Below are positions 5,201-63,400 of a stretch of 64,000 bases of DNA, in pieces (the stretch's first letter is position 1; each line of letters begins with the position of its first letter). This DNA is from Deuterostichococcus epilithicus. Taxonomy: Eukaryota; Chlorophyta; Trebouxiophyceae; Prasiolales; Stichococcaceae. The stretch is from assembly GCA_033439295.1 (NCBI GenBank), contig JAVTLE010000003.1, forward strand, positions 2,480,001 to 2,544,000. Reading direction: 5' to 3'. Made by a program: the position numbers and the translations under genes. Under the pieces are notes generated by a model, which did not search any database, was not told the origin of the DNA, and was given only the letters and a program-made list of their open reading frames with translations.

Positions 5201-7511
5201 GTGCTGCCTTGCAGCTGAGGAGGCTGCGCACACGAGCATGCAGCGAGACCATGCAGGGCTGCGTGCAAACAGTGGCTGCATGCAGGCAGCATGCATGATC
5301 CCAGGGTCGCAGCTTGAGCCACATGGTCCCGAGAACAACGTGGGCAGTCGTACCTGGTCGAGAGCATCCCGCTGCGTCCGCCAGGGGCGGCCGCCGGTGA
5401 GCGCGGCGGAGCGCAGCGGCGCACCCTTCGCCAGGCCCCGCACTACCGCCAGCACCTGCTGGCACAGCTCTGCGGAAGGGGACGGCACGCGGGCGTCAGG
5501 CAATGAGGCTCAGTGCCCATGCAGCAGACAGAACACGGGTCCCGTGCCACCGCCAGCAACCTCTGGCGCAGCTCTGCAGAAGGCAAGCAGATATTCGGGT
5601 GTCAGATCCACTGGTCGTGCTCGGCAGCCTGTCAAGGAGGGCCCTGCACCAACGTTGGTACTGGCTGACACGGGTTCAAGATCTGCCAGCCGCCTCTCCG
5701 AATCCAGCCCATGCTGCCTGTCACCTTGCCCACCGCCTTCCCTTCCACTCGATGCCCCACCAGCTAGCACATCTCGAGGAACAAGCACCTTCGGAGCAGC
5801 GAGCACCTTCTGTGGGCGTGATGATGACGAGGCGCGGGCAGTTGGGGCGCGTCACGGGTCCGCCAGCAGCGGCCTCCTGTGCCCGCAGCGCTTGCACCAG
5901 GGGGGCCAGGTATGCCAGCGTCTTGCCGCTGCCGGCGTGGTCTGCGACCGCCACGTGCGGGGCGTCCGACTGCAGCGCCCGCCATGCCGCCGCCTGCGTG
6001 CGGAGGCGACGGAGGCTTCAGCACGGTCCGTCGCCGCCACATGCGGTGCGCTCAGCAGTCGTGCCCAGCACGCCGCGACCACTGCAAGTGGGTTTGTGGC
6101 CGCTTAGGCACTTTGAGGGTCCCATACAGAGGTTGTCCCAGGAGACGATGGGGAAGCCACTGGCAGCGTGCAGCGGCGCCCTATCAGCAGTCTGTGCATT
6201 GGAGAACACGGGAGCTACGCAGGGAGGCAAAGTAGCAGCGGCCATGCGCGAGTTGGCGCCACAGAATAGTCTAGGTAGCCAGATGGTGCTCTATGCAAGC
6301 ATCATGTGCATCGGCCGTGACATTGACTGTGCCGCCAAGCATCGCTACACTGTACGGAACCTGGTTAACTGCAAGACGGAGACGAGCTCAGTCCATTTGC
6401 ATGTGAGGAGGCGCGTGACGTCGACCCACTTCAGCGGCTCTGCCTTCCCGAGCCGAGGCTTTCAAGGAGCCAGCAGACACGCCCCTCAGAACCCACAACG
6501 ACAGCTCACCTGGATGTGCGAGGGGCGAGTGATGCCCAGCCCCTTCAGCGCCTCCACCATTTCCTCCGAGGCGCCACCTGCCTTGAAGCTCTGCGAAGTG
6601 AAGAAGGTCGCCTTGCTTACAGGGCCGCCCTGCTGCCCCCGGTGCTGCTGCTCCTGCCGCCTGCAGGGGGAGGTATGCCCCAAGCCGTCAGCTGCGTGCT
6701 TCAGCATGCAGGCAGCGGCTGCCCCAGAGGTGACACGGCGCTGCCGCAGCTTGCGGTGGGGTTCAGACTCCCGGCACAGCCCCACGAAGGGCTGCAGCCG
6801 CACGAAGCGCAACTCATCCGCGCTAGCGGGATCTTGTGGACCCGTGAGTGTGATGAATCAATGCTCTCCCAGGAGCACAAGTGAGAATCGCAAGGGCGCA
6901 CATGGCGGCGCAAGCACTTGGGAGACTGCAGCAAGCTATTTCCTGCTGCCAGGATACTTTCTTGGTGGGCCCAAGAAGAGAGCCTTACCTCGGTCCGCTG
7001 TCACGATGCGATCGGCTGCCGCCATCCCTGTCTCGGTAGCCGCCGCCGCCGCCCCTGCCGCCGCCTCCGCTGCCGCCTCTGCCAAACTGCCGACTGGGCC
7101 TGCCAACGTCATCGTCGTCCTGGTACCGCCGCTGCGGAGATCTGCCTCCGTACCTGTCCCCGCCGCCCCTGCCGCCGCGCCCGCCGCCGCCGCCGCCGCG
7201 GCCCAGACGCCCCCCGCCGCTGCTGTGACCCTCCCGCTGCTCGTAGGCTGCAAGTGCACCAGCCGGCCGGCCACTGGTTCCTGCAGCGGCGCCGCTGCCT
7301 CGTCTGTCCGCGAGGACGCTGCTGCTGTGCAATCCAGCGCCCCTGCAACCACCCAATATGGAGCATTGGTGGATCGTCGCACTGTGCATCGGTTTGCATG
7401 GCAAATATGGGCAGATTCAGACGGTTTCCATTAGTTCATTCTCAGCCACCACGCGCAGCAGACAAGCCGTCGGGCAGATTTGCCAGCTGCGCCGCGCCTG
7501 AGAGCTTGCAT
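2242..7511 (-). CDS. RH50: DEAD-box RNA helicase, RH50-like, probably plastid
   Basis: ATP-dependent RNA helicase. Exons in coding order: 7453-7511, 6989-7342, 6510-6822, 5807-5993, 5354-5469, 5011-5125, 4568-4741, 4079-4182, 3493-3771, 2925-3134, 2242-2517. All phases join, giving about 728 residues. Visible motifs: Q-motif region ITRPSHIQ, motif I AGSGKT, Ia TPTE, GG (LTGG), APGR, motif II DEAD, motif III TAT, motif IV IVFCNK, motif V DRASRGID, and motif [13 protein letters not shown]. The stretch from motif V to the C-terminal [12 protein letters not shown] matches what I recall of Arabidopsis RH50 and its relative RH39, which are chloroplast proteins. The N-terminus is Arg/Ser-rich and transit-like, followed by a Gly/Arg-rich (RGG) segment. 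An Asp/Glu-rich insert follows motif IV. The start is inferred: ATG at 7511 joined to 7342. An ATG at 7389 in the same frame is the alternative. Confidence 0.88.
2900..3218. repeat. Inverted repeat flanking a helicase exon
   Basis: CTGATTCAAACCCC at 2900-2913 is the exact reverse complement of GGGGTTTGAATCAG at 3205-3218, with weaker matching just outside. The arms lie in the two introns around the exon at 2925-3134. One ambiguous base (n) lies at 2898. Confidence 0.75.
5547..5605 (-). repeat. Decoy copy of RH50 exon start
   Basis: This intronic stretch repeats 5443-5501, which holds the acceptor and first bases of the exon beginning at 5469, at an offset of 104 bp. On the minus strand the copy keeps a pyrimidine-rich tract, a CAG acceptor and an AGCTG-type exon start, then diverges. 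Confidence 0.75.
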
Positions 7512-7969
7512 CTGCAGCCTCCGACGGCGATCCGCCTGATCGGCACGCCGCCGGCGCCTTGCTGGACAGCCTGCGGGTGGAGTGCTGGTTTTGTGTCGGT
7601 GTATACAATCGAACTGTTCGTGCGGCGCCACGAAAGTTTGCTATACAAAAGTTTGCTATACAAAATTTCCGGAAGCAGAGGAAGGCGCGCTCAATGCAGG
7701 CAGCGGGGGATGCACTGACTGGCACAAATTCAATTTGACTTGTTTTGTTGGTAACATCCTGCTTGTGTCCTGTTGCGCACCAGAAGACGCCACTGCCACC
7801 TCGCTCGCTGGCGCCAAAGTCCACATCCTTGGTCGGTTCCCGACCTTCAACCGAACACCCGGCCGCTGCTATTCGGAACATATCGTCTTTGTTCGCTTCG
7901 AAAACGACGTGACTCCTGTTCCACACTTTCCAGTCGTCTCGGAACCACACCCTTCACAACTTGACAACA
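7512..7969. promoter_or_regulatory. Divergent promoter region, RH50 / PDCD5
   Basis: This 458-bp stretch lies between two outward-facing start codons and should hold both promoters. It contains a perfect tandem pair of a 15-bp unit, GTTTGCTATACAAAA, at 7636-7650 and 7651-7665. No clear TATA box was identified. A long minus-strand open frame here has no recognisable protein and is treated as chance. Confidence 0.5.
7636..7665. repeat. 15-bp perfect tandem pair in promoter
   Basis: GTTTGCTATACAAAA occurs twice head to tail between RH50 and PDCD5. It is AT-rich in an otherwise GC-rich region and could be a promoter element; function is unknown. Confidence 0.85.
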
Positions 7970-19183: not shown

Positions 19184-19271
19184 ATCCGATGCCTGTACGT
19201 CCAGTCCAAGCCTGGCGCCTCAGAGCACACTCAGCCATCACGAGCCAAGCTCTGCAAGCTGCAGCTCACTT

Positions 19272-22200
19272 TCAGGCTGCGACGGCCAGCGCTGCTGCCG
19301 TATAATTGGTGGCAAACACGTCCTCCAGCGAGCAGTCGCGATCGAAGCGGATGGTGTCGGTCTCGGGCCGCAGCGAGCAGCAGTCCACCTAAACAGACCA
19401 TAATAGCAAGTCGATGTGCGCGCTTAGCATAATGGGCAGGAGAGCGGCCAGAGAGCAAGCTGCAGCACGTTTCGCTGACCCCTCCACGTCAGACCCGCCC
19501 CACCAAGCTTGTCATCTCGTCTGCATCAGCGCTGCCCACCTTGGCTGGAGGCGTGTACGCCGCCCAGTCGATGGGCGGCGCGGCGGCGACATCCGCCCAG
19601 GTTGTCGCATTGGCGGCAACAAAGGGGGCGCCGCCGGCGCCGGCGCTCCGCACCGCCTGAGCCTCCCGCAGCGTGTACGCCTGCGCTTGTGGACAGGGAC
19701 CGATCTTATGTGACGGCGACTAAACTCTGAACGCTGAAGGGCGCCGCGTACTTGCCTGCACCTCGTGCGGCGCGTGCGCCTGCGCTTGCGGACTGGAGAA
19801 TGCAAGGAGGAGAGGGTGGCTCAAAAAGATAAAAAGAAGTTCGAAAAGTCGGCGCATCTGGAACCTGCGGCTCGACGCTCTCCCTATGGGACAGAGCAGG
19901 TTTGTCTAAGCAATGATTGGCACCATGCTGGCGCAAGCTGCGGGGCAATTGAGGATTGAACAAGAAGAGAGGCCGCCTCGCCCATGCAATGCCCCGGGCG
20001 TGGTCCAGCCGCAGGCATGCGCAACCCACTTCGAAGGCTTCTACACTATTGGCAAGAAACCCCCGTGCCGGGTGCCGCTCTTGACATGGGCATGGCTGCC
20101 CGTCACGCACCAAACGGACGCCAGGATCTATGATGAACTTGTGGCGCCCGAGGCGCGCGTAGTCGGCGCAGAGCAGGGAGCACTCCGACGCCGCGCACTC
20201 CCCCGGCTGGTGCGCCCTGCAGCATTGCGCAGTTCGAGCTGTTTGGAGGGTGTTCACNGGACAAATATGCGGGAGCACCCCCCCCCCACAATTGCAAGAC
20301 ATGCTGAAAGCTTGACAAACTTGAGCCTGTTCATCTCGGTGACTTGCTGTCGCAACAGTGGCTATTCCTGCGCCACGCAATGAAGCAGCTGTGCTTGCAG
20401 GTTGCAGGACCGGCGGGGATCGGCGACGTGTTCACAGGGTGCCAGCCAGGTCGCGCGCTGCCGCGCACTCCCTGAGCTGACTGCGCCCTGTGTCGCCACC
20501 TCAGCAGATTGCGCAAGCAACCGTTCGGACTGGCAGCGTGTTTGTGGCACTCTGGCTTGACGCATGGCTGCCGCTGCTGCCAAACCTCCTGCTGATACGT
20601 GACAAAGGCATCACATGGGTGCACATCAGGTTTCTGATTACGACCGCTGCTAATGAGCGTGGCTTGCGCAGCTTCGGGGCCTGGCTACTGGACCTGCCCC
20701 AGCAACACTCTTCGTGACCCCGCTGCCAAGACGCCATGGTGGCTTGGCCGGCAGGAGCCGGCCGCGGTTACCCAAGCCTGCAAGTATTTTAGTGTTTAGT
20801 GGTTTGTATTGCGCTGCTGGCGGAGAGCAGTCAAAGGAGAGCAGACAAGCACCTCATGCGCAGGCCGGCGCGCAGCGGCGCAGCGTCGAGCACCGCCAGC
20901 CCGTTCNANNAGCAGGNGACGGGCGCAGGCAGCCCCGCCGCGATGCGCGCGCCGCCGGCGGGCTGCCGCAGGNNNNGCGGCAGCTTGGCCGCGGCGCCGC
21001 CGGCGGCGTCGCGCGTCACCCAGCTGTCGTACAGCTGCAGCGGCGCACCCACCTGGGAGTGCAAAAGGGTTTTGAGCGGTGCACGCACGGTAACGTGCGG
21101 CAGCATAAGACCAGGATGCATGTGGGTGCGGAACGAGGTGATTCTCTTTGCATATTTCAAGGAGCACATGGCTGCAAGACAACAAATACTAGGTTCTGAA
21201 GGAATATAGTCCCAGTCGGCGCACCTGGAAAGCTGCGTCTGTTGAGGCGGCGTCGCGCCACTGCCGCAGCAGCAGCGTCCAGCGCCCGATTGCGCGTCCC
21301 AGCGGCCGCGGCACCCAGGCGCGGGCCGCCAGCCACTCTGCAAACAGCCGCCGCTGCTCCTGCGAACAAGAGGACAGCTGAAGGCGAACCCGTGGCTTGC
21401 TGACAGAAGGGGCAGCTGCCGCTGGCTCTGCACGGCCAGCGGACGTCATGCTGTGCGGCCACAGGCTGCGCATGGCTAAGCAGCGCCTGCCCGACATGAC
21501 CCACGACCCGGGTGCCTGGCATGAAGTCAATCCCAGGCTCGCTGCGCCTCTGAGGAACTTCCACTGATGATGCAGGATGCAGGATGGCGGATGCGGGAAG
21601 CACTGGCAACGCCTGCCTGCCCAGCCGCGCAGCGCGGCGCTGGTCGACGTTAATGCTGCAGGCAGGGTGTTCAACTAGCTTCCCCAAAGTGGGTTGGGAC
21701 ACTTAGATGGGACACGAGGTACTGATCGTCATACTTGGCGGTCCATCTGCGCGATGCGCGGCCGGTCGAAGTCCATGCCGCAGGCCAGGTGGGCGCCCTC
21801 ATGCGCAAGCAGCCGGGCCACGTCGCCGGCGCACGCCCAGACATCGTTCAGGAAGACGACGCGGTCCGCCGGCCACGGCTTGTCCTGTGCAGGAACGTGT
21901 GTGAACATTCGCCAGGGGGACCAGGCGCCAGCGCAGGCGCCCACGCGGAAATGGCAAGTGCGTGCGACTGACGATCTGCGCGCGGCTTGTGCGGGCAGTG
22001 ACAGCCTGGCAGCTCGGTGGAATCGCCTGGGCCGCAGCCCCGAGCCACCGTCTCGGTATCGGAGTCATTGAGTCGCGGATAAGTGCCACGCCTGCCAGAG
22101 GGGCGCCAGCGCGGCGTTGCGCACGCCCGCCAGGAAGGCGATGCGGTCCTGACCGGCGCCCCGCCGCAGCCCGCCGCCTGCCTCGATGACCGATGGCTGT

Positions 22201-23895
22201 GGCAGCCACATGGCCAGCTGTCGCAGCACGCCCAGCCACGCGCCTGCAGGCAGGGTTGGGTTTCAGGGGCAGTGTGTCAGCGCCCTCTGTTCTGACCAAG
22301 CAGGTGATCCAGGACAGCCCACGCCCCAGGGGCGATTGCGGAAGCAGGCACCGCTGTCGCCGCCACGCCTTTCCTGACAATCCAGCCTGACCACAGCGGG
22401 CCGCCTCGCAAGCCCTTCACCCTGGACCCCCTCGCCAGGGGCACCTGTGCTGTCGGAGCTGCCGCTCTCGTAGATGGACAGGTAGACGCTGCGCTGCGGG
22501 AAGTAGACCAGCAGCGCCGCCAGCTGGAGGATGAGGTGCGGCATGAGAGCCGCTGCGTCCTTCAGGTTTGCCGCGACCAGCAGCTTGCCGTACCTGTGCC
22601 CGTAGCACCACATGTCAGGAGTCCAGACTTGCCGCGACCAGCAGCCTGCCATACCTGTGCGCGCAGCACTGCAGGTTAACGGTGGCAGCTGCGGCTGCCT
22701 GCAGCTGCCTTCTGCGGGCTGAGGTGCGGCGACAGCGTCCCTCCACAGTTGCATGTTGGCGGCCCCTATGAGCAGCTGCCGACACCTGCTCGGATGGCTT
22801 TGCGCTATGACCGGAAGGCTGCTGCCGGTTGCAAGCTTGGACATTTCCGTGCGCGGTGTCGGCACGTCTGCATTCCTTGTCCCGCTGTGCGGTGGCACCC
22901 CTTTGCTCACCGGGCCGGCTCGGCGGGCAGGGTTGGATCCCAGGGACACGGCAGCGTCGGCGACGCCGCCTGCAGGCCCACCACGAGTTTCGCCAGCTCC
23001 TGCTGCAGTGCCGGGTCTGGGCCGACGCCGGCCGTTGCCGCTGCCGCACGGCCCGGCAGCAGGCCCGCCTCAATGAGCACCCGCGCCAGCGCTGCTGCGA
23101 CTTCCTGCCGCTTGTGCTTGTGCAGCTCCGCGCCTTCCACCTGCCTGCAGCACCACCCAACACAGGATAGGGCCGTGCAACCTGTGCCGTGTGCGCACGT
23201 TTGACATTGCCGTCACGCGTAACACCAATCCGAGATGCACTGCCGCGTGCATGCATGGATGCTTGACAGGGTGCGTATCATCCATGTCTGGGGGTGGGCG
23301 GCTGCTGGGCTGTTGACCAAGCCGCACAAATCAAGGAACAAGACACACACATCAAAGGTTCAAGACCTGAGCATCTCTGAGGCGGCCAGCAGCGAGTCGC
23401 GGGAGCCAGCGTCCAGGCCGGCCTTGAGCACTTGCCGCGCGGCGCCCGGCGGCCGCCGCACAAGCAGGAAGTAGGCTACCAGCAGCAGCATCTGCGATGC
23501 AAGACACAGCATGCACTGGTGAGACGGGCGCCGTGCTGAAAGCGGACGGCATGATGACATAGCCACGGGGGCGCAATGCATCACGCTGCGGGCATTCCCG
23601 CTGCTGAACTGTGCAGCAGGGCAGCCGACGGCATGTCGCCTGGACCGATTGGCCACGCGCTTGCCAAAGTGGTTGGCGGTTAAAGTAACTGGTTCCAGGC
23701 GCAGGGATGGCAGCACACCGCGCCCCAAACCGCGCCGAGGGCCCTTCGGCGCGGCTTCCTGCCGCCAGTGCCGCGACCCCGCAGCGGAGGCGACGGCGGC
23801 CGGGACGGCATGAGGGCTTGGGGCTCTGATGCTCCGGCTGGCTTAATGCCGCGGCCACTGCGCTGCGTCTGCTGCATGCCGTCAGCGTCTGCCAT
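19272..23895 (-). CDS. CMT1-like GT69 glycosyltransferase, type II membrane protein
   Basis: Resembles the cryptococcal alpha-1,3-mannosyltransferase CMT1 family (GT69), which uses a nucleotide sugar in the secretory pathway. Exons: 23719-23895, 23367-23491, 22950-23144, 22445-22593, 22092-22243, 21735-21884, 21225-21359, 20853-21052, 20111-20216, 19540-19680, 19272-19388. All phases join, giving about 548 residues. Order of features: an Arg/Pro-rich cytoplasmic tail, a signal anchor (MLLLVAYFLLV), a stem, then YGKLLVAANL, VYLSIYESGSSDST, DRIAFLAGVRNAAL, DRVVFLNDVWACAGD (the D-containing motif of the family), ACGMDFDRP, YDSWVTRD, GECAASECSLLCADYARLG, and a cysteine-bearing end (VDCCSLRPE). 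The donor after 22092 must be GC to keep phase. Eight ambiguous bases fall in the 20853-21052 exon and one (20258) in the next intron. The acceptor substrate in an alga is unknown. Confidence 0.83.
19753..19792 (-). repeat. Decoy copy of GT69 exon-10 start
   Basis: It repeats 19654-19693, the acceptor and first exon bases of exon 19540-19680, offset by 99 bp into the upstream intron. The minus-strand copy keeps the AAGCGCAG acceptor followed by a GCGCACGCGCC exon-like start. Confidence 0.75.
22627..22672 (-). repeat. Decoy copy of GT69 exon-4 start
   Basis: It repeats 22566-22611 at an offset of 61 bp: the CACAG acceptor plus about 36 bp encoding YG(K/R)LLVAA. In the copy the frame runs into TGA a few codons later, so its use would truncate the protein. 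A weaker, inverted look-alike occurs at about 22799-22840. Confidence 0.85.
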
Positions 23896-24613: not shown

Positions 24614-27600
24614 ATGGCCGCAGCGCCTCGGCGCCGGCGCCTGCCGCTGGCCTTTGCGTTCCTGGCAGCGGCTGCGCTGCTGCCAGAAGCTTCAGCCCTC
24701 ATCAGGGAGACGCAGCTGGGGGAGGTGGACTGGCACCGCCAGTTCGTGGGCCAGGTCACGCGCGCGGAGTTTGCGCCGGGCGCTCGGCCAAGGGTGTTTG
24801 TGGCCACCGCCGCGAGTGTGGTCGCCTGCCTCAACCTGCGCGATGGCGACATCGTCTGGCGCCAGGTGGGCCGCTGCCGCCTTGTCTGCACCATTCGGAT
24901 TCGGACCCGCTGACATGAGCACGACACTTCTCTGCTGTGCATGACAAGCGGCATGATGCACTGAGAAGCCTCTGCGGGACGCCTCACGGGGACCTGGCGA
25001 CTTGCAATCGCGACAGGTGCTCGACGCGGACGACGGCATCGAGGCGCTGGCGCTGCTGGAGGCGCCGTCCGGCGCCGTCGTGACGCTGTCCGGCGGCATG
25101 CTGCGGGCCTGGGCCGCTGCCGACGGCGCGCTGCTGTGGGAGCACCACCTGCCGGGCGCGCTGCCGCCGCCGCCGCTGTCTCCAGCTGGTGGAGACGGTG
25201 ATGGCGATACCAGCCTGCCGCCCGGGGCGCAGCGGGATGCCGCGGCGGCGGGTGCCGCTGCGGCCGGGGGCGCCGGCGGAAATGCGGCGCTTGCAGTGCT
25301 GCCGGCCGGCGAGGGGCGGGCAGCGCCGCTCGTGGCGGTGCTTATTGGCAGCACCGTGCATGTGAGTGGGCATCCAACAAGCACCACTTCTGCAGCGACC
25401 ATGAGCAAAGTGCAGCGGCGCTGCAGATGATCTGCTGCAAGTGCACTGTCCGCTGCCTTGCACACCAGCTTGCCCCCGCCAGTCGTGCATCTGGCCAGCG
25501 ATGCTTCTCTCTGACCTGGAAGATGCCGCAGCTGATGCGAACCCCAAGGCTGATTCCCCAAGTGGGTGCCCCGTTCTGGCACAGGGCATTACTGTCGGCA
25601 GCGGTGGCGCCACGCTCGCCTGGAGCCTGCCGCTCGAGGGCTGGGAAGCCGCGACGGACGTGCAGCTGGCGGCTGGTCCCGCCGGCATCACCGCTGCCGG
25701 CCTGGTGCAGGGGTGCGCTCTGGAGTCCTGATGCACCGAAAAACCTATCCTCCGTTCATGGCCGCCAGGGCACCTTCCATACAAGACAAGCTCAAGCTCA
25801 ACTGCCTGGGGAAAGCTGTTGTGCCTTGATTTCCTGCTCAGGCTGTCACCGCCTCTCCTCCTTCGGGCCGGCAACGGCCTCCGGGTCAAGGGCGACAATA
25901 TTCTGAATCATGCCCTTGCCGACTGTTGATGCCGTGCCGCCCCGCACCTGACGCCTGGTGTGCCTGGCTGGTGTGTCAGGGGCACCTCGCTGGGTGTCGC
26001 GCACATCGAGCTGGCATCCGACGGCGGCGCCTCCGTCACGCGGGCACAGGCGCTGGCCACGGGACATGACCTGCAGGTGGCGCCTCTGAGGTCTCACTAG
26101 TCTGCCGGCAGCTCAAGCTCTCAAACAGTCACATGCGGCTCTCCATTGGCAGCTCGTGACACGAACGGGGTGTTCACGGTAGCTTGTCTCGTGCGAGGTA
26201 GTGCACATGCCTGCCTGATGGCGAACATGCCCCAGCGTGTGGCGTGTCTTCTGTGTCTTGGGTCTGACGCCCATCCCTGACGGAGACATCCGTTATCTGC
26301 GTTGCTGCAGGGGCCACTGCACCTGGGTGCTGACGGCATCGCATCAGCGCTGACATCCAGGGGCGACCTGCTGTGTTCCGCAAGCGTGGCCGGTGCGGAC
26401 CGTCCGATACAAATCTGCTGCAGTTCTTGGTCGTGTATAGTACAAAATTCCTCTGTAAATCACTGTCACCTGACACGCTCACGACATTTTTCTGCACAGT
26501 TGCGCCTTCGCATTTCCCAGCAGCAATCTGAAACCCATTCCCGCGCACGTGCCGCAGGTGGAGACATCGTCGACTGCCGAAGAGTGCCGGAGGGCCTTGG
26601 CGCCAAGCCCCGCGTCCTGCCGGTCGCCAACGTCACAGGCGGCGTCCTGCTGCACACAGGCGACGGCGTTGCGGTGCTGCAGCCTGGCTCCGGCGACGCT
26701 GCAGCTGTGTTTGCGGGTGCGTCTGAGCTGTGCCTCATTGGAGTCCCAAGGCGCAGCAGCCTGCAGGCACAGGCACATCCACCCGGAGGGGCCAGGCCAG
26801 CATGTTGGGCAGACCACTGCAGGCCGCTCCGTGCCTGCAGAGCCCGCAGCAAGCGGTAGCTTCACGCCTGTGATGCCAGCCGGCATTTTCACGCCTGCAA
26901 CGCCGACCCCTGCGATGCCGACCCCAACACTGACGTCCGCAGGCGCGACAGCGGCGTCAGACGTGGTGCAGTCGCGCGCGGGGCCGGTGCTGGCCCTCGC
27001 CGGCGCCGATGGCGGCGCACGCTGGACGAAGGTGGTCCGCACCGCCGGCTGGCAGGTGAATGTTTTGTGCCAAGCGCTTGACGGGGACAGCGCTGAAAAC
27101 TCGCTGAAGAAGCCCGGCAACAGGGACCACGTCCTGTATGCCAGGGCTTGCCTTCATCTCCGCTGCGCCACAATCTCTAAACCCTAAACTCTAAAGCAGG
27201 GAGCAGCACTGCCGCCGCTCGGCGTCTTCTTCAACCGAAGGCTGGGGCGTTGGCCTGTTGCTTGGTCTGTGCCTTGACCGTCGCAGAAACTCGCGCGCAA
27301 CCGCAGACCGCACGGCGCCCAGCCGGTCGTCGGCGAGGAGCAGGCGGAACATACTGTGTGCTGGATGCCTTGGGGGACCGCCTGAACTGCTCAACATCGT
27401 GGTGCTAGACTTGGCAGGTCATCTTGGCCGGTCACCAGGGTGGAGTGTCTGGAGGTCGCCTGCCTTTCGAATCTTTCATAGGACGTCGTTGCTTCGCCTG
27501 CCTGACTGTCTTCTCGATCCTGCACGAGGTCGTGAGCGAGGAGCGCGTGGAAGGTGCGGGCCTGCTGGACGCGGGGGGGCAGCCGCTGCCGGTGGTGGCC

Positions 27601-30600
27601 GCGGCACTTGGCGCCTTCCGTCGCAAGGACGACCAGCCAGGCTTCAGGCGCGTTGAGACTTCCGAGGCTCAGCAGTTCCCGGTGATTGTCCAAGTGTCTA
27701 CTGCAGTTGTGGCTGGCGCACTGGCGACGCTGGCAGAACAGCACTATAGCATTGGTGAAGCGGAGTGGCCTGATATGGCACAGGAACCTTCGTCCAAGGC
27801 CCTCATCCGTGCGCCGTGATCGTCCCTCACTCGTCTATCGGCAGGGGCCCAGCGATGCTGATAGACCGCCCAACGGCGCTGCTGCAGGGGCGCCGTCACT
27901 GCAAGTTGAAGTGATATCCAGATGGTATACTGTCTCGACAGAACCGTTCACGCTTCTCGGCTTGGCAGGGTGCTGGCAATGCTGGCGGACCACACCACGG
28001 CGCTGCTGCAGGGGCGCCGTCACTGCAGTCTGGAGTGGCATCAATCGTGTTTCAACATGACCATCCATGCTTCATGTCTCGGCAGGGTGCTGGCGATGCT
28101 GGGCGACCACACCACGGCGCTGCTGCAGCAGGGCGTGCTGGTGTGGGCGCGGCCGGAGGCCCTCGCCGGCGTGCTGGCGACGCGCTTCGTGGAGCTGCCG
28201 TCCAGGGCCGCCGGCGGCGTCGCGCCGCTGCGCTCGCCGCTGAGCCTGCGGGAGCGGCTCGACTTCCAGCTCCTGAGCCTCAAGGCGCGCTTTAAACCCT
28301 AATCTCGTTCGTGGAGGCGCGCAGACCCTGCCGCAAAGCACCGGCTGCAGACGACCAGCGAACAGGCGGTCGTCTTGGCTGCAGCAACACCCTGAAAACT
28401 CCGAGTCCCGATCTGGTAAGCGTGATGCGGCGCTGCATAGAGTGCTCTGAAAGGCTGCCGATGCAGGCCTGGGCACGAACTCAAGCATGCATCCCACACT
28501 GCTGTGGCACAGGACATTGCGATCCTGGGCGAGCCGCTCAAGCCGGCTGCGCTGCTGCACGACCTCTGGGCGTCTGCACAAACATGCCGGGCTGGAGCTG
28601 ATGCAGACGTGCCCTAACCCCCGACGTGGCCGTTGTCATGCGCAGGACAGTGTGATGCTGGCCAAGCCGGCCGAGACGGCGGCGCTGCAGGCGCGGCGCT
28701 CCGAGCTGAGCACCAAGCACCTGCCGACGCGCGATGGCAACGGCTTCCGCCGCCTCCTGCTGCTGCTGACCGCCTCGGGTGCGCCTGCAGCGCGCACGGT
28801 CGACACCGAGGCCGTCCACAGCTTGCATGTGCCTGCAAAGAACATGGTCGAAACCGTGGCTGTCCCATAGCTTCCATGCGAGAGGCATTCTGGGCCGGTT
28901 TGCACCAGTGCCGCGGCGTGTGCACCCTCATTTCCGTCGCCATAGGGCCGGATCCCGGCTGCAACGTGACCTGGAGGCCGCTGAGAATGAGACCCTGAAC
29001 CCTTGGATCCGGGAGCCAAACAAGCTCCTCCACGAACGGTGCAGGTAAGCTTGCGGCACTGCACAACGGTGGCGGCGGCGTGGTCTGGTCCGCAGACTTT
29101 GGGCCGCCGACGGACGGACAGCTGTATGGCAAGGCATCCGCGCAGCTGTTGCCCTGGCGGTCGGCGCACGATACCCAGCACGCGCCCGAGGTGCGGAGCT
29201 GTTACTGTTGCCCCACAGGGGAGCGCCATTCCTTATTTCGTACTTTCCCCTGCTCCCTCGACAGCAGACAGCAGCTGCTGTGCGTCATTTTTCTGAGGGT
29301 TCGGGCAACCAGTCGCTCCTGGGTCTCATGGCAGCAGACCTCAGCAAGTGTCCTCTGCTGCCGCTTCAAGCAGGGTTGTGACTGATTTCCAGACCTCCGC
29401 TGCCGATGCCTCGTTTGGTGCCTCACCACCATTATCGACGCCTCATTGACGCCTCATCAAATGAGCTATTCCTCGTTAACACCTCAGTCAGAAGCGAATG
29501 GGAAGCCGAGGTCCTTCACGGCTGGCGGCGGCACGTGAATTGTACCCAGGCTGCCTGTGTCCACTACAGGTCCTGGTGCTGCTGAGGCACGGGCCCGGCA
29601 CCACGCTGGCGGCGACAGTGAATGCACACACAGGGCGTGTGCTCACGCAAGACGTGCTCCCGATGGAGGTGACACAGGTGGGCAGAGACACAACCCTGCC
29701 CTGCCATGCACGATTTGGAAGACAGCTCTGCTGCCAGAACCGGATCGCTGGTTGGGTCTTAAACAGACCCCTTCACTCACACGCCGCTCCTTACCCAGCA
29801 CTCTGCGTCAGCAGCCGTCGTCTTCTGTCGTCCTTCCCTGTCATCCTTCCCTTGTGACACAAACAGCGACGGTGCTGATTGCCTGTCATGCGGCGCACAC
29901 CTGTTGGAAGACGATCGATTGCACAAGGCGGTGCTGCTGAGCGCACAAGCCTCTACTCTTCCCGAGTGCTGTGACTTTTTCCTTACATAAAAACCACCAA
30001 TCCAGATGGAAGTTGAAGCAAAGCTCTTGCCTCCCGCCAGGCTCGATGGCCCGCCGCCGAGCAGCGGGTGTACCTGCTGTCAGCTTGCGGATTTTCCGAC
30101 TGCTCATGTCGACGCCTGCCTCATGTTGGTAACCCCTATACCCTATTCAATTTGCCAGGTGCTGGAAGTGCCGCGCTCCGTCAGGGAGGGCGCTGCCGAG
30201 CAGCGAGTGTTCCTGCTGGCGGCGCCGCCTCCGGCGCCTGGCGGCGCGCCGACGCTGTCGGTGATGCCTGACTCGCCGGCGGCTCGCGCAGCGGCGGCCG
30301 CCGCCGCGCCGGCCATGAACTTCTGGCAGGCCGACGCTGCCACCGGTGCGTTTCCTTGCGCACCCACGACCTGTAAAGCAAGCCTGTGTGCTATGCGCTG
30401 CACTGATGAAGGCTGGCATGGTCGCTCATACCGCAGCGAGACTCTTTCCGCTCCGACTGCCGGGGCGCTGTGAGCATGTCACCGGCTCATGGATGTCGGC
30501 CCAACGATTCCGCTCCTCCTGCGCTGGTCTGGTAGTAAACACCCGTGGCCATGAGATGTGACCGGCTAGCTGCAGCCGACCAGGGGATACTGAGTACAAA

Positions 30601-33600
30601 CTTAGTGTCCCCTGATCCGGCTGGTGAGGCCTGGTGTGTGTGTGTGTGTGTGTGGTCACGATGCCTCGTCAGCATGCAGTGTCCTGCCCAAACACTGCCT
30701 GCGACGGTGACTCTGCGGCCTCATCCCCCCCCCTCCCCATTCTGCGCAGGCGTGCTGCGCGGCTGGGGCCNGGACGGCCAGCTGCGCGCGGAGGAGCGGT
30801 GGGCGGCGGCGCGCCCCTCGGCGGCGCCGGCGCTGCTGGCGGTGGTGCCGCGCCAGCCCGGCGAGCCGCTGCACACGGCCGCCAAGGTGCAATCGCGGCG
30901 CGGCCGAGTGTGCACAAACGACGCCAAACAATGAAGAACGTGCATGCATGTCACATGGGTGCTTCCGATGGCACGCTCGAATGCGCCGACCTGTGCGGAC
31001 CCCGAGCTGCGTATGGGTTGGTCGGTTGTTTTTGGTACAACACCAATGCTCAGCGCGCTTCCTCTTTCAAGATCGACCGCACCCTCTGCTGCACGCACTC
31101 TGGCGGAGGACTGGCAAAAATGTGGTGCGTCAGCTGCCGCGGCTGTGGGCCACGAGGGCAGCATAGGATGTCAGCGCCCCACAGCGCAGTTCTTGCGAGG
31201 TTTCCTGGCAACACGCGTCCTCCACCAAACAGTCGTCGACACTGTGGAGGGGACTGAAAACCGACCGAGCCATCACCGAGGTCCCTCCTGGTGATCGAGG
31301 CAGTAATGCCCCTAAACCCTGCTGCCTCGACAGGTCCTGGGCGACCGCAGCCTCAAGGTGAAGCACCTCAATCCGCACGCGCTGCTGGTGGCGAGCGGTG
31401 TGCCCAAAGGCCGCCCGGCGCCGCCGGGCGAGCTGCAGCTGCACGTGGACATCCTCGACGCGGTGACTGGGCGGCCGCTCTTCCGCCAAGTCCACCAGGT
31501 GCTGCGGCGCTTCGGGAACGACTCCAGCCGAACATGGATCTCTGCTGCAGATGGTCGCCAATTAACAGTGTATTCCTCTCAATGTGAGGGAACCCCCTCA
31601 GTGTGAGGGAACGCCTGCTGGCGTGCTCGCACAGCAAGCGCTTCTGCAACCTCGTCTGCTTGAAGCAGCGCATGCCGCCCTGAACCCCCAACCCAGCCCA
31701 ATCCCAGTCTCAGAGCTCGAGCGACGCCCTGAGCAGTATGCCGCATCTGTCTGGGCGTCCCGCCCACCGCCTGTCCTGGCTGCTGCAGAACAGCAGCCCC
31801 TGCACTGCCATTCCCCTTGCTGCCTACCTGTGCACCCCTGATAGATTCTGTCCCCGCACCTCCGGTGCAGGGCTGCCGCGGGCCCGTCCACGGCGTGGTG
31901 GCGGACCACTGGGCTGTGTACTCCTACTGGAACGCAGACGAGCGCCGCTCCCAGGTACTACACCCCAAACCCTGAACCACGTGCCCCTTCCTCTTCCCTG
32001 CAATCAGTCGACGTCAGCTCACCGCTACCAGGTCCTTTACACTCCTTGCCGCGCTGGCGTGAAGGACGGCGCGCGCACGCCCATCGACTGTTTCTGGTGG
32101 GGTGAGTGACGCTGTATTGCGTGCTGCTGACGTGCACGCAAGTCATGGTGGCAGAGTCGGGTGCTCCAGGGCGTGTACGCTACCCTCGACGTCAGCAACG
32201 GTGTTACCCAAGATCAGCGTTTCCGATCCCGCACCTCGCTCCCGCAGGTGTCTGTCGTGGAGCTGTATGAGGCCCAAGGCGCCGCCTTCGACCTGCGGGC
32301 GCTGCTCTTCGGCGGCGCCAATCGCACCACATCCGCCTACGCGCCAGCGCCCTTGGAGGTGTGTTTCCAAGAACTAATTCTTTAAGAGAACACCCCACCA
32401 CCTTCGGATCCTTGAGCCTCGCTTGACTGAGCCACGTTGCTTCGACAACCTTCTGGGGGCCTCAAAGCGGCCTGGCTTGCCCGGGAAGCAGTGACGCCCT
32501 GCGGCGCTGTCAGCCCACCGTGGCGAGCGTGCACAGTCCGTGCACAGCACATTCGCTGCACAGCCGGCGGGCTTGCGCGACGCCGCGCTGGGAGGCTGAC
32601 CGCTGTTTGAGACGCTGCGGCTGCCGGCTGCAGCCGCGACGACCACGCGGCGGCGGCCGGAAGTGTTCCGGATATGGACACGATGTCATCATTGCACTTG
32701 GGATTCTGTTTTCATAAAACATATATGAGCCCCGCCTCCTGCAACGCGCGGCCTGCTGTCGCAGGTGCTGAGGGAGAGCTTCTTCTGGAGCGCCCAGGTC
32801 ACAGCGGCGGCGGTGACGACCACCGCCCGTGGCATCACATCCAAGTTCGTGCTGCTGGGCACCGCATCCGACCAGGTACGAGGGTTTAGGGTTCAAACCC
32901 ACAGCGCACAGCTCAAACACAATGATGATGCGTGAACTGCCTGTGCGTTCTCTCACTAGAAATTCGTGCTGCTGGGCACCGCATCCGACCAGGCACGTCC
33001 ATCGCACAGCTCAAAGACAATGCTGATGTGATGGTGGCCTGTGTGCTCTCACCATGAATTTGTGCGGCATCACCCTCGGAGGTCGTGCTGCTGGTCACCG
33101 TATGCGACAAGGTAGGGGCAATGCGAATGAGGCGACACTCAGCAGCTTCAGTAGGTGCTGCAGCGCCAAAGAGGACGTTTGCTGCGAGCCGCAGCCTCGC
33201 CTCATGCGTTGACGTTTTGAAGCACTTGAGAAGAGAGCGAAGGCTGCATGCCCAGTCGTTTGACAACCCAGTGGCGCAGCTGCACAGGGTGCAACTGCAC
33301 ACGTGTGACAGCTGCTTTGACTTTACAACACGGAAGATCGACACGATACAACACGGAAGACACGATGGAGCTTCGTCTCCGTTTCTGTGTACATGATGCA
33401 GAAGCACTTCCTGAACCCGCGGCGGCCCCGCAAGGCGGTCTAGGAGCCAAGACCCGTGCGGAGCAGGAGGAAGCCTGTCCTTGCTGATATCCACAGCTTT
33501 CAATGCAGAGACCCCTAACCCCTCCCCTGCCACAGGTTTACATGGCTGGCAAGTTCTTCTCGGAGCGGCGGAGTTCCCGGCCGTTCCCGCAAGACGGCGG

Positions 33601-34744
33601 CAGCCAGCGTTCAGCAGCTTAAATAGAGGCCCCTCTTTTGCTGACAATGTTACCGCTGCACGCTGCAACTGATTCAGAACGTTTCCCATCCTGTGCAGGT
33701 CTACATGATGGACAAGCGGTTCCTGGACCCGCGGCGGCCCCGCAAGGCGGCGAAGGAGCTGACGCTCGCAGAGCAGGAGGAGCGCCTGGTGCCCTTCTCG
33801 CCGCTGCTGCCGCTGGCGCCGCAGCTGTACGCGTCCTACAGCCGCCGCGTCGCCCGCCTCGCAGGTGCATGTGCCTGTAGCCACTTTGTGTCGAGTACAA
33901 CAAGGACCCCAGCAGCTGGGAAGACAGCAGGCGGAGCGCCCCTTGTGCCCTGCTGCTGCCGCTGACGCCACAGCTCTTATTGCCGCACAAAGCCGCCATG
34001 TCACCCGCTTGGCGGGTGCATGCGCGGCAGCGAGCAAGGCAGCCAACGCGGAGCTGCAGCGGCTGCATGACGCAATCCTGCAAGGACGCGGCGGCAGCCA
34101 AGGCCGCCAAATGTGGACATGCGGCGGCGGCAGGCCGCGGTCTTGAAGAAGGCAGCGGCCGATGCGGAGCTGCGACGGCGGCAAGCCGCGGCCCTGGAGG
34201 AGGCGCCCTGATCTTCAACCGCCTCCTCCAGGACCGCAGCCTGCCGCCGTTGCAGCTCCGTGTTGGCGGCCTTGACTGCCGCAACCGCCCTCTCGTCCGC
34301 GTCATGCTGCCGCAGCTCTGCGCCGGCGTCCTTGGCTGCCGCCGCCTCCTCGTAGCCCGACTGATCGTGGCTGCTGCCTGAGCGTCCTGGTATGGCGCTC
34401 ACTCGCCGCGTCGCAAGGCTCTCGGCTCAGGCGCCGGGGTTCCCTCCCGCCGAGGAGCCCGGTCCAGGCTTTGGCTCCATCAGCTCCTTGGGTGCCCCCG
34501 TCCCACCGTCGGTGATTGCGCAGGCATCGCCACTGCGCCGGCGGCCATGGAGTCGACGAGCCATGTGCTGGCGCACGGGCTGGACCTGTTTTACACCCGC
34601 GTTGCTCCAGCGGCGAGCTTTGACGGCGTCGCCGACGACTTCCCCTTTGCGCTGCTGCTGCTGATCACCGGCGGCCTGGCGGGAGGCGCATACGTTCTCC
34701 GTGGCCTGGCTGCACGCCGGGATGTACGCCGCAAGTGGGAGTGA
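24614..34744 (+). CDS. EMC1: ER membrane protein complex subunit 1
   Basis: Largest EMC subunit, which helps insert tail-anchored and multipass proteins into the ER membrane. Twenty exons: 24614-24865, 25017-25361, 25585-25712, 25980-26076, 26311-26392, 26558-26716, 26841-27055, 27529-27647, 28086-28284, 28646-28778, 29045-29190, 29570-29677, 30159-30345, 30750-30886, 31334-31498, 31871-31954, 32248-32358, 32765-32875, 33699-33864, 34524-34744. Phases join throughout, about 1054 residues. A signal peptide (FAFLAAAALLPEASA) precedes the conserved EVDWHRQFVGQV and a beta-propeller lumenal domain with VATAASVVACLNLRDGDIVW. The C-terminal DUF1620 region holds RGITSKFVLLGTASDQ and MMDKRFLDPRRP. 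It ends HGLDLFYTRVAP, one membrane helix (FALLLLITGGLAGGAYVL) and a basic tail. Exon 7 adds a Thr/Pro-rich insert. Exons 8 and 9 need GC donors. One n lies at 30771. Confidence 0.92.
27171..27193 (+). repeat. Telomere-like motif in EMC1 intron
   Basis: CTCTAAACCCTAAACTCTAAA in the intron before exon 8; close to two CCCTAAA units. Confidence 0.75.
27833..28132 (+). repeat. ~120-bp tandem triplication at EMC1 exon 9 start
   Basis: Three head-to-tail copies with GCAG acceptors at 27841, 27965 and 28082 (offsets 124 and 117 bp). Each has a CGGCAG or TTGGCAG acceptor, then a GGTGCTGGCGATGCTG-like exon start and ACGGCGCTGCTGCAG. Only the third continues into the true exon; the first two run into CAGGGGCGCCGTCACTGCA and intron-like sequence. 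Confidence 0.9.
30633..30654 (+). repeat. TG dinucleotide microsatellite
   Basis: Eleven or so TG units in an EMC1 intron. Confidence 0.9.
32843..33111 (+). repeat. Tandem copies of EMC1 exon 18 end and donor
   Basis: The last 33 bp of exon 18 (32843-32875) recur almost exactly at 32960-32992 and more divergently at 33082-33111. Flanking intron sequence (GCACAGCTCAAA.ACAATG) is duplicated as well. The true copy is followed by GTACG, the second by GCACG and the third by GTAGG, so potential donors persist. Confidence 0.9.
33387..33470 (+). repeat. Decoy copy A of EMC1 exon 19
   Basis: About 84 bp closely match the start of exon 19 (33699 onward), including TACATGATG and CCGCGGCGGCCCCGCAAGGCGG. 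The acceptor CAG is lost (TGTGTACATG) and an in-frame TAG interrupts the frame. Confidence 0.9.
33531..33597 (+). repeat. Decoy copy B of EMC1 exon 19
   Basis: A more diverged copy of the exon 19 start. It retains an intact CCACAG acceptor, GTTTACATGG and a modified GGCGGAGTTCCCGGCCG tract, and reaches a stop in frame at 33619-33621. Confidence 0.75.
33938..34027 (+). repeat. Downstream copy of EMC1 exon 19 end and donor
   Basis: This repeats the 3' half of exon 19 with its donor (33788-33872): the CTGCTGCCGCTG.CGCC core, the AGCCGCC.TGTC.CCCGC tract and a GGTGCATG donor-like end. It lies in the following intron. Confidence 0.8.
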
Positions 34745-34762: not shown

Positions 34763-34897
34763 GTAGCATCGGGGCCTCCTGGCAGTCGCCAATGTCTTTG
34801 CCTTTGCACTGCTGTTGCTGACCGCCGGGGTTCTGTTGCACGGCGCATGCATGCTCTGGAACCTGGCGTGGCACCGCATGGCGTGCCGCATGTGAAA
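34763..34897 (+). pseudogene. Decayed copy of EMC1 C-terminal exon
   Basis: Just after the EMC1 stop there is a stretch resembling the last part of exon 20: FAFALLLLTAG against FPFALLLLITG, then a similar hydrophobic and basic run ending in TGA. It is best explained as a degenerate tandem duplicate of the coding end of EMC1 lying in its 3' untranslated region. Confidence 0.65.
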
Positions 34898-46975: not shown

Positions 46976-46988
46976 TTACAAGCTGTAA
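46976..46988. terminator. Back-to-back TGTAA polyadenylation signals
   Basis: TTACAAGCTGTAA places a TGTAA on each strand within 13 bp, between the converging TauD-like (212 bp past its stop) and CAP-G (159 bp past its stop) genes. TGTAA is the usual poly(A) signal of chlorophytes. That both genes use this pair is inference. Confidence 0.6.
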
Positions 46989-47138
46989 ACAACTGGGTAC
47001 CACTGTCCCGCACGAGGAAACTCTTTGGAAGCTTATGACGAGAATGCGCTCTTTGAGCTTTGCTGTGAAATCGAACGTTAACGAAAGTACCATTTTATGT
47101 CACATTCTATGTACTAGGAAAATATTGCATGCAACCTC

Positions 47139-60452: not shown

Positions 60453-63400
60453 TCAGGTGGTGTACTCGGCATTGATCTTGACATAGTCGTAGCTGAGGTC
60501 GCAGCCCCACGCCATGCCCTCGCCGGGCCCATCGCCTGCGACAGTACATGGGGCAATCGCTTTGACACACCACAAGTGGCGGCCGGCTCAACCCCGGAGT
60601 CGAAGCAAGTGTTCGTGCCTCGCTTGATGTTGCCCTTGGCGCAAATCGCAGCCAGCCACTGCACTGCCAGGTCACTAGCAGTGCACGGGTTCTGCGCCAG
60701 GCGCTTGATTGAGCGCTTGCCCCAGTCTGACCTCGTTCAGAGCACGCACCAATGGACACGGCAATCTCCACGGTGCCATGCTCCGCCGTCGTCTCCGTCA
60801 GGTACTTGGAAGCGGCGGCGGCGTCAAAGTCCAGCGGCTGGCCTGCCTCCATGAGCGGCATGCCGCCCAGCGAGATGCGCATGTCGCCCTGCTCATACAG
60901 CACGCCCGTGTACCTGCAATGATGCAAGGGTTCGACCACCTTCAGACTCGCCCAGAGACTTGCCCAGGGACGCCCACAGCCCGGCAACGTGCGGAGTTGC
61001 CTGCCCGTGCTGGGGTCTGGCAGCGCCTGGCCGGTGTCTTTCTGCGGGCTGGCTGCCGCCCGGCCGACGGCAGTCAAGGAGTGCGGCGGCCGCACAGGCG
61101 CCTGCAGGCTTTCGTGGTCCGTGCAGCGCGGTCGCCAGCACGACAGAGGGCCTCACAGCGCACAGGGACAGGACCGCATCAGGGTGTGCCGTGCACAACA
61201 ACAAAACCTGAAACTTCTTTCGTGTGGAGTCCAGTCACACACCCGGCGGCGCAGGCGATGCGGCCCCAGTTTGGGTCGTGCCCGTAGACCGCGGCCTTGA
61301 CGAGGCTGCTGCCGGCGATGGAGCGCGCGACCGCGTTGGCGGCGGCCTCGTCCGGCGCGCCGCTGCAGGCCACCTCCATGAGGCAGGTGGCGCCCTCACC
61401 ATCCCAGGCGATGGACTTGGCCAGGCCCTGTGGTGTTGTGCAAAACAGCGCTTTGCAGAGCGCCGGCTCGGGACAATATTGTGCATGCCATTTCGGGCTT
61501 CCATTCTCTCCTCACTGGCGCGCAGTGGACCTGGCCGGAACCGGCGGCGACGGCGGCTGTGACACACGGTCGCATTCCGGTGGGTCAGCGAAGCTCAAGT
61601 GTTCTGAGCATGGCGCCCATCAGGGCCTTCCCTGAGTGCACTCGGCGGGCTGGCGCACTCTGATCGGGATGTGTACGACCCAGGCACGAGAACATCTTCA
61701 AGCGGCTCAAAGGTCTAGGCATTGCACACTTGGCTTAGACCTTAGACCTTTGAGGCGTACGGAGATGGTCTCGTGCCCGGGTTCTGGAATTACTGATCAG
61801 ATCTTGAGACACGAGGTGCCCACCTGTAGCAGCGCCGTGACGGCGGCCTCCAGCTGCGCCGCCTCCTCGCTGTGGGCGTCGGCGATGGGCGCGTTGCCCG
61901 CGGCGCCGCTGGCCAGCCCCAGCACCGTGTCATTGGTGCTGGTGTCCCCGTCCACAGTGATCTGCGCAGGTAGAGGTTCAATCTCCCACAAAGCCGAAGT
62001 CATCGGTTCGGCTCGCCATGAGAAAGCTGAGGCGATGGCCGGAACGGTAGCGCCCTGGCTGGCCCCAGCAGGAAGCCAATTTGTTGTTGCTCTTGTGGTT
62101 GGCTTGTGGTTGCCGTAGCTCGTGGTTTGCAGGGTGAAGTAAACCCTGAGCGACGGCAGGGGCCGTCTATCCTGGGGCTCCGGATGCTGCACAGCTTTGA
62201 GGGAGAAGGCTTCGCATGGCTGCAAATCCCCGCACACCACCACCGGCATGTTTCCGGCGGGAGTGGGCCAGTCTGAGCACGCAAGGTGAGGCCTCTGGCG
62301 AGTCCCATGCAACTCCTGCAACCCGCATCCACCCGGTTGGCAGGGCCTGACGGCACGCTGTCAGGCAGGCAGCACGCCTAAGGTGTTTAGCTTCTGCAAC
62401 CCTTCCAGCAGCCTTGCATTCATGACATTGCGGACGTGGCTGTTCTTTCTGAGACAGCGCGAGATGGACAGGTAGAACAGGGTCATCGACGAGGGGGAAT
62501 TTGGAAACCAGAGGGGGAAACAGAGTGAGACTTGGAGCTTGAGCTTCAGGTGCGCCGTACGCCCAATCTGCTCGAAGGAGGAACTTCCAGAAAACATCAA
62601 GGTCATTTTCCCATCAAGTCATTCCCCAGGCACCTGCTTGAGGAGCTGGCCCCCTCGAGCCAGTACAAGGACCCAGGCGCACCCGCAGCGCACCTGGTTG
62701 AAGGACTTCACGGCAGCGCGCTTGAACAGCGCCCGCCAGATGTCCACCTCGACGGCTATGTCGCAGGTGACGACGGCCAGCATGGTGGCCATGTTGGGGT
62801 GGATCATGCCAGACCCCTTGGCGATGCCGCCCATCCGCACGGTCTTCCCGCCGATCTCCACCTGCATTGCGACAGCGGCGAACATCGGCGTCTGCGCAGT
62901 GGTTTTGTCACTCGTCCCAGCATGTGGCCCCTTGGCGATGCCGCCTGGCCGCACCGTCTTCCCCCCGATCTCCACCTGCTTTGTTGTTGTATAGGCTGAT
63001 GTGCTTTATGGAAGCAGATCAGCATGGGCGCTCACCCATCGCTGAAGACGCTCAAGCCCTCCTTACACGTTTGCCTGGGGAGCCAGCCCGCGTCCTGCCG
63101 CCCGCTGACATGCAGCATGCGTCTTGTTCTCCTGACCTGAGTGTTTACCAAACAGCCGAGGGCAAGCACGGCTAGCTCGACGGCTGCCCCTCATGTGGCG
63201 CGCTCCTGCTGGCGAGGCGCGCCGTCATGACGGCGGCGGGGCCTTGTGACCCTCACTGAAGTGAGGGGCGGTAGAGCAGGACTGCTGACAAAAGGACCTT
63301 CACCTCGAGCGCCGCACTCTTGCTGACCAGGTCCGTTGTGGTGATGGCCACTGCCGCATGGTGCGCTGCCTCGGCTGTCGGCTCCAGGCTCTCCGCCAGA

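What the first reader, a model, noticed from the sequence alone, without database searches (positions are those of the whole stretch)
5443..62983. Recurrent tandem copies of exon edges inside introns
In RH50, GT69 (two sites), EMC1 (several), CAP-G, ArgJ and perhaps the TauD-like gene, 20-90 bp covering a splice site and the adjoining exon edge are repeated in the neighbouring intron. Offsets are 61-124 bp, mostly 97-124. Copies are diverged to different degrees, so this is ongoing rather than one event. They preserve CAG acceptors or donors and could act as decoy splice sites. I know of tandem duplication as a source of exons and introns, but not of a genome where half the genes in 64 kb show it.
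Basis: partly seen in the sequence, partly recalled or inferred. Interest (0 to 1): 0.85.

Follow-up and report, generated by a model that had tools for sequence, protein, structure and literature searches.

The report
Relic tandem duplications across exon edges
In this green-alga genome about one sampled intron in eleven holds a decayed copy of the edge of the exon next to it, most simply the leftover of small tandem DNA duplications that stay visible only where one copy is kept intact as protein-coding sequence.

Summary
The repeats are real, direct, local and far beyond chance. With self-trained gene models, 43 of 465 introns (9.2%) hold a copy of an adjoining exon edge: 27 acceptor-side and 22 donor-side, against means of 0.39 and 0.32 in length-matched controls. 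The window (11 of 112 introns) is no richer than 19 other sampled loci (32 of 353). Exon sequence 65-125 nt from the edge is at chance level, and only one inverted copy scored above threshold. Offsets centre on 97-124 nt.

The copies decay like neutral sequence: divergence 0.163/0.170/0.246 by codon position, with mostly 1-2 nt gaps. AG or GT survives in 21 of 37 copies. Simulated random ~110-bp tandem duplications, mostly old, in introns with frequent indels reproduce most of the pattern, including the apparent preference for exon edges. That preference is then mainly survivorship: the exon copy stays readable while noncoding pairs decay in both copies.

Not supported: the TauD-like and CAP-G genes, "half the genes" (4 of 12 models), and a steady ongoing process (young copies are scarcer than it predicts). 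The mutation class is known. The density may be unusual, but no second eukaryotic genome could be compared.

The parts
2242..7389 (-). DEAD-box helicase gene model ('RH50' of the finding)
   Evidence: gene finder; Pfam DEAD 1.9e-28
5538..5581 (-). intronic copy of the acceptor edge of exon 5354-5469 (offset 104)
   Evidence: score 26; pair 5434-5479/5538-5583
6025..6076 (-). weak intronic copy of the start of exon 5807-5993
   Evidence: score 18
6389..6440 (-). weak intronic copy of the end of exon 6510-6660, in the same intron
   Evidence: score 21
19272..23895 (-). GT69 gene model
   Evidence: gene finder; CAP59_mtransfer 1.8e-19
22624..22676 (-). intronic copy of the acceptor edge of exon 22445-22593 (offset 61)
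   Evidence: 83% over 53 nt; spacer homology score 12
21614..21669 (-). intronic copy of the donor edge of exon 21735-21884 (offset 122)
   Evidence: 70% over 56 nt; score 22
19754..19796 (-). copy of the acceptor edge of exon 19540-19680 (offset 99); the gene finder reads part of it as an 18-nt exon
   Evidence: 79% over 43 nt; model
24614..34741 (+). EMC1 gene model
   Evidence: gene finder; EMC1_C 3.7e-27
27840..28013 (+). two successive copies of the start of exon 28086-28284 (steps 124 and 117)
   Evidence: families D3 and D4
30052..30084 (+). intronic copy of 30191-30223, inside exon 30159-30345 (offset 139)
   Evidence: 85% over 33 nt
32960..33112 (+). two successive copies of the end of exon 32765-32875 with its donor (steps 117 and 119)
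   Evidence: 95% over 38 nt; spacer homology score 27
33387..33579 (+). two diverged copies of the start of exon 33699-33864 (33387-33447 and 33533-33579)
   Evidence: 85% over 61 nt at offset 312; score 17
33954..34022 (+). intronic copy of the donor edge of exon 33699-33864 (offset about 151)
   Evidence: score 31
34785..34894 (+). copy of the last EMC1 exon (34628-34737) lying after the end of the gene model (offset 157)
   Evidence: 66% over 110 nt
60453..64000 (-). ArgJ gene model (runs off the window)
   Evidence: gene finder; ArgJ 3.1e-96 for the hand-joined part
62928..62983 (-). intronic copy of the ArgJ acceptor edge 62814-62869 (offset 114); the gene finder takes the copy's acceptor as the exon start (62975)
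   Evidence: 89% over 56 nt; profile continuous from 132 to 377 with the downstream acceptor
63184..63234 (-). weak copy of the donor edge of ArgJ exon 63304-63528
   Evidence: score 17

Best explanation
Small direct tandem duplications (unit mostly about 60-160 bp) have hit this genome repeatedly. Where the unit crosses an exon edge, the gene is unharmed as long as splicing uses the real site, so the extra copy of exon edge plus some intron stays in the intron and decays neutrally. The exon itself is held by selection, so the pair stays recognisable, while pairs lying wholly in noncoding DNA decay in both copies and vanish. Exon edges therefore look targeted when they are mainly the places where old duplications stay legible. 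Shown here: the repeats, their excess over controls, direct orientation, restriction to about 60 nt of exon, neutral-type decay of the copies, and homology across the intron part of the unit in most of the least diverged cases. Inferred: tandem origin of cases whose intron part is no longer alignable, the predominance of old events, harmlessness to splicing, and the molecular cause (fill-in repair at staggered double-strand breaks or paired nicks).
For: Excess of edge copies 49 against 0.7 per control round. Direct orientation: inverted edges 0 and 1 of 465 at score >=17, the one being an EMC1 inverted repeat. No copies of exon sequence 65-125 nt from the edge beyond chance: 0 of 189 and 1 of 187. 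Gapped homology reaching about one full unit and stopping sharply in the exon in several of 24 tested pairs. Of 6 events >=90% identical, 4 keep spacer homology at score >=12. Neutral-type divergence with frame-breaking gaps. Offsets modulo 3 even: 17, 18 and 16 of 51. Copies also occur past gene ends: EMC1, and 1 of 41 tested ends at score >=17. Simulations with ages 0.15-0.4 and 0.2-0.4 indels per substitution give edge:intron-only ratio 3.6-15.7, spacer homology 0.18-0.32 and flank identity 0.33-0.44, against observed about 7, 0.21 and 0.34-0.39.
Against: With the low indel rate seen inside the exon parts, 20 of 33 events have less spacer homology than whole-unit duplication predicts, and summed spacer score is 306 against 818 expected and 230 for unrelated sequence. 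Identity falls from about 0.8 in the exon to 0.34-0.39 within 5-10 nt of the splice site. ArgJ (89% over 56 nt, no flank homology) and the L014 and L022 events (95% and 93%, spacer scores 8 and 9) look young yet lack it. The indel rate and age range that rescue the model were chosen, not measured; the predicted gap density is 0.017-0.026 against 0.014 observed, and the share of events >=90% identical is 4-14% for ages 0.15-0.4 (23% for ages 0.1-0.3 at the highest indel rate) against 18% observed.
Confidence: 0.68

Rival explanations
1. Splice-bounded copying: a process copies only the exon edge, up to a few nucleotides past the splice site, into the neighbouring intron, next to an unrelated spacer.
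For: Sharp fall of identity at the splice site; 25 of 33 spacers not significantly homologous, 20 of 33 below the whole-unit expectation; ArgJ and two other little-diverged events lack flank homology; spliced-junction queries hit own introns 9 times against 2.3 per control round, though several of these introns hold known exon-edge arrays.
Against: 4 of 6 least diverged events do keep spacer homology; copies also occur beyond gene ends; flanks of copies do not match the other exon: mean 6.97 against 6.54, the two outliers both from one EMC1 intron; ageing reproduces the sharp border.
Confidence: 0.14
2. Staggered-break repair with filler: the exon-edge segment between two nicks is duplicated by fill-in, and new sequence is inserted between the two copies.
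For: Explains repeats flanking an unrelated spacer, as in ArgJ; short direct repeats flanking gained introns are described in Daphnia (passage in PMC3443670).
Against: Does not by itself give a border near the splice site; spacer homology is present in 7 of 33 at score >=12.
Confidence: 0.11
3. Functional decoy exons: the copies are retained because they modulate splicing of the adjoining exon.
For: Some copies keep strong sites; the gene finder itself chose copies in ArgJ and EMC1.
Against: Neutral-type decay, frame-breaking gaps; AG/GT kept in only 21 of 37.
Confidence: 0.05
4. Assembly artefact or split haplotypes.
For: None beyond 11 N bases in the window.
Against: Exon parts average 82% identity (1339 matches, 288 mismatches), with different breakpoints in the window and in 14 of 19 other loci.
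Confidence: 0.02

Closest known systems
Tandem duplication across an intron-exon boundary in potato RdRp (PMC4974935; abstract and Results section read)
   Different: There RNA reads show that both copies act as intron/exon structure and a new intron is gained; here there are no RNA data, and the copies look like decayed intronic relics, many per sampled genome.
Small tandem duplications from break repair (PMC8355091; passages read; the paired-nick and rice/Arabidopsis studies it rests on are recalled or seen only in listings)
   Same: Direct, local, short duplications.
   Different: Shown there in mouse and human cells at induced breaks and described as mostly short (<100 bp); cause here is inferred, and typical units here are near 110 bp.
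[quoted passage not shown] passages read)
   Same: Tandem duplication that involves splice-site sequence.
   Different: Predicts offset equal to intron length; tested and not found above score 16.
Short direct repeats near splice sites (PMC11782384; abstract and first part of Results read)
   Same: Direct repeats associated with intron borders.
   Different: Those are 4-30 bp and compare the two ends of an intron; here 18-90 nt of one exon edge recurs inside its own intron.
Tandem exon duplication, mutually exclusive exons (search listing only)
   Same: Exon sequence repeated within a gene.
   Different: Whole, usable exons there; partial, frame-broken edges here.

Membership tests
Small tandem duplication (mutation class) | Direct orientation, short distance | tested here: met
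   Inverted edges at score >=17: 0 and 1 of 465; offsets 57-265
Small tandem duplication (mutation class) | Homology covers the whole unit, so the two copies abut | tested here: inconclusive
   Met in 4 of 6 events >=90% identical and 7 of 33 overall at score >=12; 20 of 33 fall below expectation at the low indel rate
Small tandem duplication (mutation class) | Empty, single-copy site in a relative | not testable with these tools
   No relative of this genome is held
AGGT-type intron gain by tandem duplication | Offset equals intron length, with both splice sites in the repeats | tested here: not met
   0 of 494 introns at score >=16; weak excess at low scores: 8 against 3.7 at >=10, 1 against 0.15 at >=14
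Introner or other mobile element | Same sequence recurs at unrelated places | tested here: not met
Functional decoy or alternative exon | Constraint on the copy | tested here: not met
   Codon-position divergence 0.163/0.170/0.246; 23 of 28 gaps are 1-2 nt
Functional decoy or alternative exon | Used by the spliceosome | not testable with these tools
   No RNA data available

The most novel reading that the evidence does not exclude
This algal lineage has, or had, an exceptionally high rate of ~110-bp tandem duplication, so that introns grow largely by duplicating their own exon edges, leaving competing splice sites in about a tenth of introns. Scaling the best-fitting simulations to the 34 observed events gives of the order of 0.6-0.8 duplications per intron over about 0.2-0.25 substitutions per site (model-dependent). 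It would then be a natural system for how the spliceosome ignores near-identical decoys.
Probability: 0.3. Interest if true: 0.6.

Novelty: new member of a known kind. Interest (0 to 1): 0.42.

Why it matters
The exon acts as a preserved reference, so exon-edge copies give a way to read the history of short tandem duplication and intron turnover from one genome. If the density proves unusual, it offers many natural tests of splice-site choice between a real exon edge and a decayed copy about 110 nt away, and a plausible route by which introns lengthen and alternative sites arise. It also warns annotators: an ab initio gene finder took copies for exon sequence in ArgJ and EMC1.

Tried and rejected
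Rejected: intron gain with offset equal to intron length (0 of 494 at score >=16). Mobile element or introner family. Spliced-mRNA source of the copies (flank of copy against the other exon, 37 events, mean 6.97 against 6.54; two scores above the control maximum of 12, both from the EMC1 intron 33865-34155 that holds copies of both edges); a junction-spanning query gave 9 hits against 2.3 per control round, not pursued because several are in introns with known arrays. Coding selection on the copies. Exon-edge targeting as a necessary cause: a uniform-age simulation does reject random duplication, an older age range with more and larger indels does not. Rfam on the window: no match. Species identity: only 'green alga' (PsaB best match chain 9kqp; psaA/psaB on contig C21).

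Limits. Gene models are ab initio. At least the ArgJ exon start at 62975 and probably EMC1 exons 27969-28013 and 34156-34202 are false: the ArgJ profile is continuous without the first, EMC1_C skips the last, and 27969-28013 is one of the copies. Counts therefore carry some misassigned edges; ArgJ 62928-62983 is not among the 43. The excess also holds at exons >=130 nt (15 of 189, 13 of 187). Intron-internal repeats are above chance too (5 and 3 of 321 against 0.2 each). Dropped before counting: locus L016 (45-bp coding array), masked stretches in L009, L021, L023 and L027, introns under 70 nt or with an adjoining exon part under 12 nt (465 used of 537), and L001-L008 and L029, which are not 10-kb samples. 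One kept event (L021, copy at 8977) lies in a minisatellite-like run that the mask missed. The first pair list used a complexity filter that wrongly dropped ArgJ and others; one search replaced it. The 'about 5' intron-intron pairs in the observed ratio are what I left, by eye, of 9 such pairs after setting aside copies of copies.
Full report
What was checked. The window is G000:C3:2480001-2544000 of a 46.8-Mb genome in 21 contigs. PsaA/PsaB genes on contig C21 and the PsaB matches (best chain 9kqp) point to a green alga; the species was not identified. In the window, ungapped direct repeats at offsets 40-600 gave 22 pairs, and none at control offsets 3000-3560. With the final filter, 254 kb gave 89 pairs against 3, 3, 8 and 7 in four far-offset bands.

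Gene models. I seeded a coding model with 689 codons from Pfam-supported stretches (GC at third positions 0.87) and self-trained a two-strand gene finder on 254 kb: the window and 19 other 10-kb loci. It converged on 550 introns, donor CAG|GTGCG, acceptor YGCAG|G, median intron 213 nt. Window models include a DEAD-box helicase, a PDCD5-type protein, HscB, GT69, EMC1, a TauD-family enzyme, a HEAT-repeat condensin-like protein and ArgJ. 'RH50' in the finding is the DEAD-box helicase.

Is it more than chance? For 465 introns I aligned the adjoining exon edge (60 nt of exon plus 8 of intron) to the intron's own interior and to length-matched introns elsewhere. At score >=17 there were 27 acceptor-side and 22 donor-side copies, in 43 introns. 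One hundred control rounds gave means of 0.39 and 0.32 and never more than 4 together. The window had 11 of 112 introns and the other 19 loci 32 of 353; 5 of those 19 loci had none. Inverted edges gave 0 and 1 hits; the one, score 26, is an inverted repeat in EMC1 beside a doubtful exon. Exon sequence 65-125 nt from the edge gave 0 of 189 and 1 of 187. Edges of exons >=130 nt kept the excess: 15 of 189 and 13 of 187. Intron-internal repeats were also above chance but fewer: 5 and 3 of 321 against 0.2 each. The exon part is 18-90 nt, median 45 (51 events). Offsets have quartiles 97, 115 and 124 (37 events).

Where the pairs lie. By class, 53 of 89 pairs joined exon or edge to intron against 33.5 for random placement, 9 were intron-intron against 23.9, and none intergenic-intergenic against 14.6.

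How the copies age. Against their exons, copies differ at 0.163, 0.170 and 0.246 of first, second and third codon positions, with 28 gaps, 23 of them 1 or 2 nt. That is what a neutral intronic copy plus synonymous change in the exon would give, not coding constraint. Offsets modulo 3 are even (17, 18, 16 of 51). AG survives in 12 of 20 acceptor copies and GT in 9 of 17 donor copies (a cruder mapping gave 9 of 28 and 8 of 23), so decoy sites are not specially kept.

Whole-unit duplication, or copying of exon edges only? If a unit crossing the edge was duplicated in tandem, the spacer between copy and real exon should match the intron flank of the copy. In several of 24 pairs gapped homology spans about one full unit and stops sharply in the exon. 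Of 6 events with exon part >=90% identical, 4 show spacer homology at score >=12. Over 33 testable events, however, only 8 spacers are homologous at P<0.05, the summed score is 306 against 818 expected and 230 for unrelated sequence, and 20 fall below expectation when the low indel rate seen in the exon parts is used. Mean identity falls to 0.34 at acceptor positions -10 to -6 and 0.39 at donor positions +5 to +9. Taken alone this suggests copying bounded by the splice site.

Simulation. Random ~110-bp duplications over the real exon-intron structures with uniform ages fail: edge to intron-only ratio 1.2-1.6 and spacer homology 0.65-0.73, against observed values of about 7 (34 to about 5, the 5 judged by eye from 9) and 0.21. 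Ages of 0.15-0.4 substitutions per site with 0.2-0.4 indels per substitution, sizes up to 40 nt, give ratio 3.6-15.7, spacer homology 0.18-0.32, flank identity 0.33-0.44 and mean exon identity 0.80-0.83 (observed 0.82). Ages 0.1-0.3 at the highest indel rate give 4.7, 0.31, 0.40-0.42 and 0.86. So exon-edge bias, sharp border and scarcity of intron-intron pairs can follow from ageing, because the exon is the only part held constant. The price is an indel rate I chose, not measured; its predicted gap density (0.017-0.026 per bp) is above the observed 0.014, and 18% of observed events are >=90% identical against 4-23% in those runs.

Scope and cause. Copies are not confined to splice sites: EMC1's last exon has a 110-nt copy after the end of the gene model, and 1 of 41 tested gene ends, but 0 of 19 starts, had one at score >=17. 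Introns share no evident repeat family and the ArgJ insert has no second home found in the genome. Repair of breaks with staggered ends is a known source of small tandem duplications (passages of PMC8355091) and is the inferred cause. Event-bearing introns are longer (median 368 against 218 nt); longer introns also give more room for a match, so this is only consistent with growth by duplication.

Comparison with what is known. A tandem duplication across an intron-exon boundary, with RNA-confirmed new structure, is described in potato RdRp (PMC4974935). The AGGT intron-gain form, with offset equal to intron length, was tested and not met. Six literature searches listed, as far as titles and abstract starts show, no report of exon-edge copies at this density; most subscription papers are not in that library. 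No second eukaryotic genome could be compared, so whether the rate is unusual stays open.

Verdict. The residual puzzle is the sharp border near the splice site in a few little-diverged cases such as ArgJ.

Noticed in passing
window 34024-34153 and 34221-34342: An inverted repeat (72% over 130 nt) between two predicted EMC1 introns, on either side of a doubtful 47-nt predicted exon that also has direct copies at 34039-34080 and 34111-34153.
   Followed up: partly
L028 (C3:2470001-2480000) and window 657-843: Diverged cysteine-rich coding repeats recur at several offsets in L028, just upstream of the window, and a similar coding pair (offset 93) lies in the window's first gene model, as if one repeat-protein gene or cluster.
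   Followed up: no
all sampled loci: About 14% of predicted donors are GC rather than GT; some are artefacts of copies read as exons, so the true share is unknown.
   Followed up: no
L016 1-10000: The whole 10 kb (C3:900001-910000, GC 0.72) is a tandem array with a 45-bp period, about 85% alike between neighbours.
   Followed up: no
L023 1860-3259: A 342-bp tandem array, 99% identical between copies, by far the youngest tandem duplication seen in the sample.
   Followed up: no
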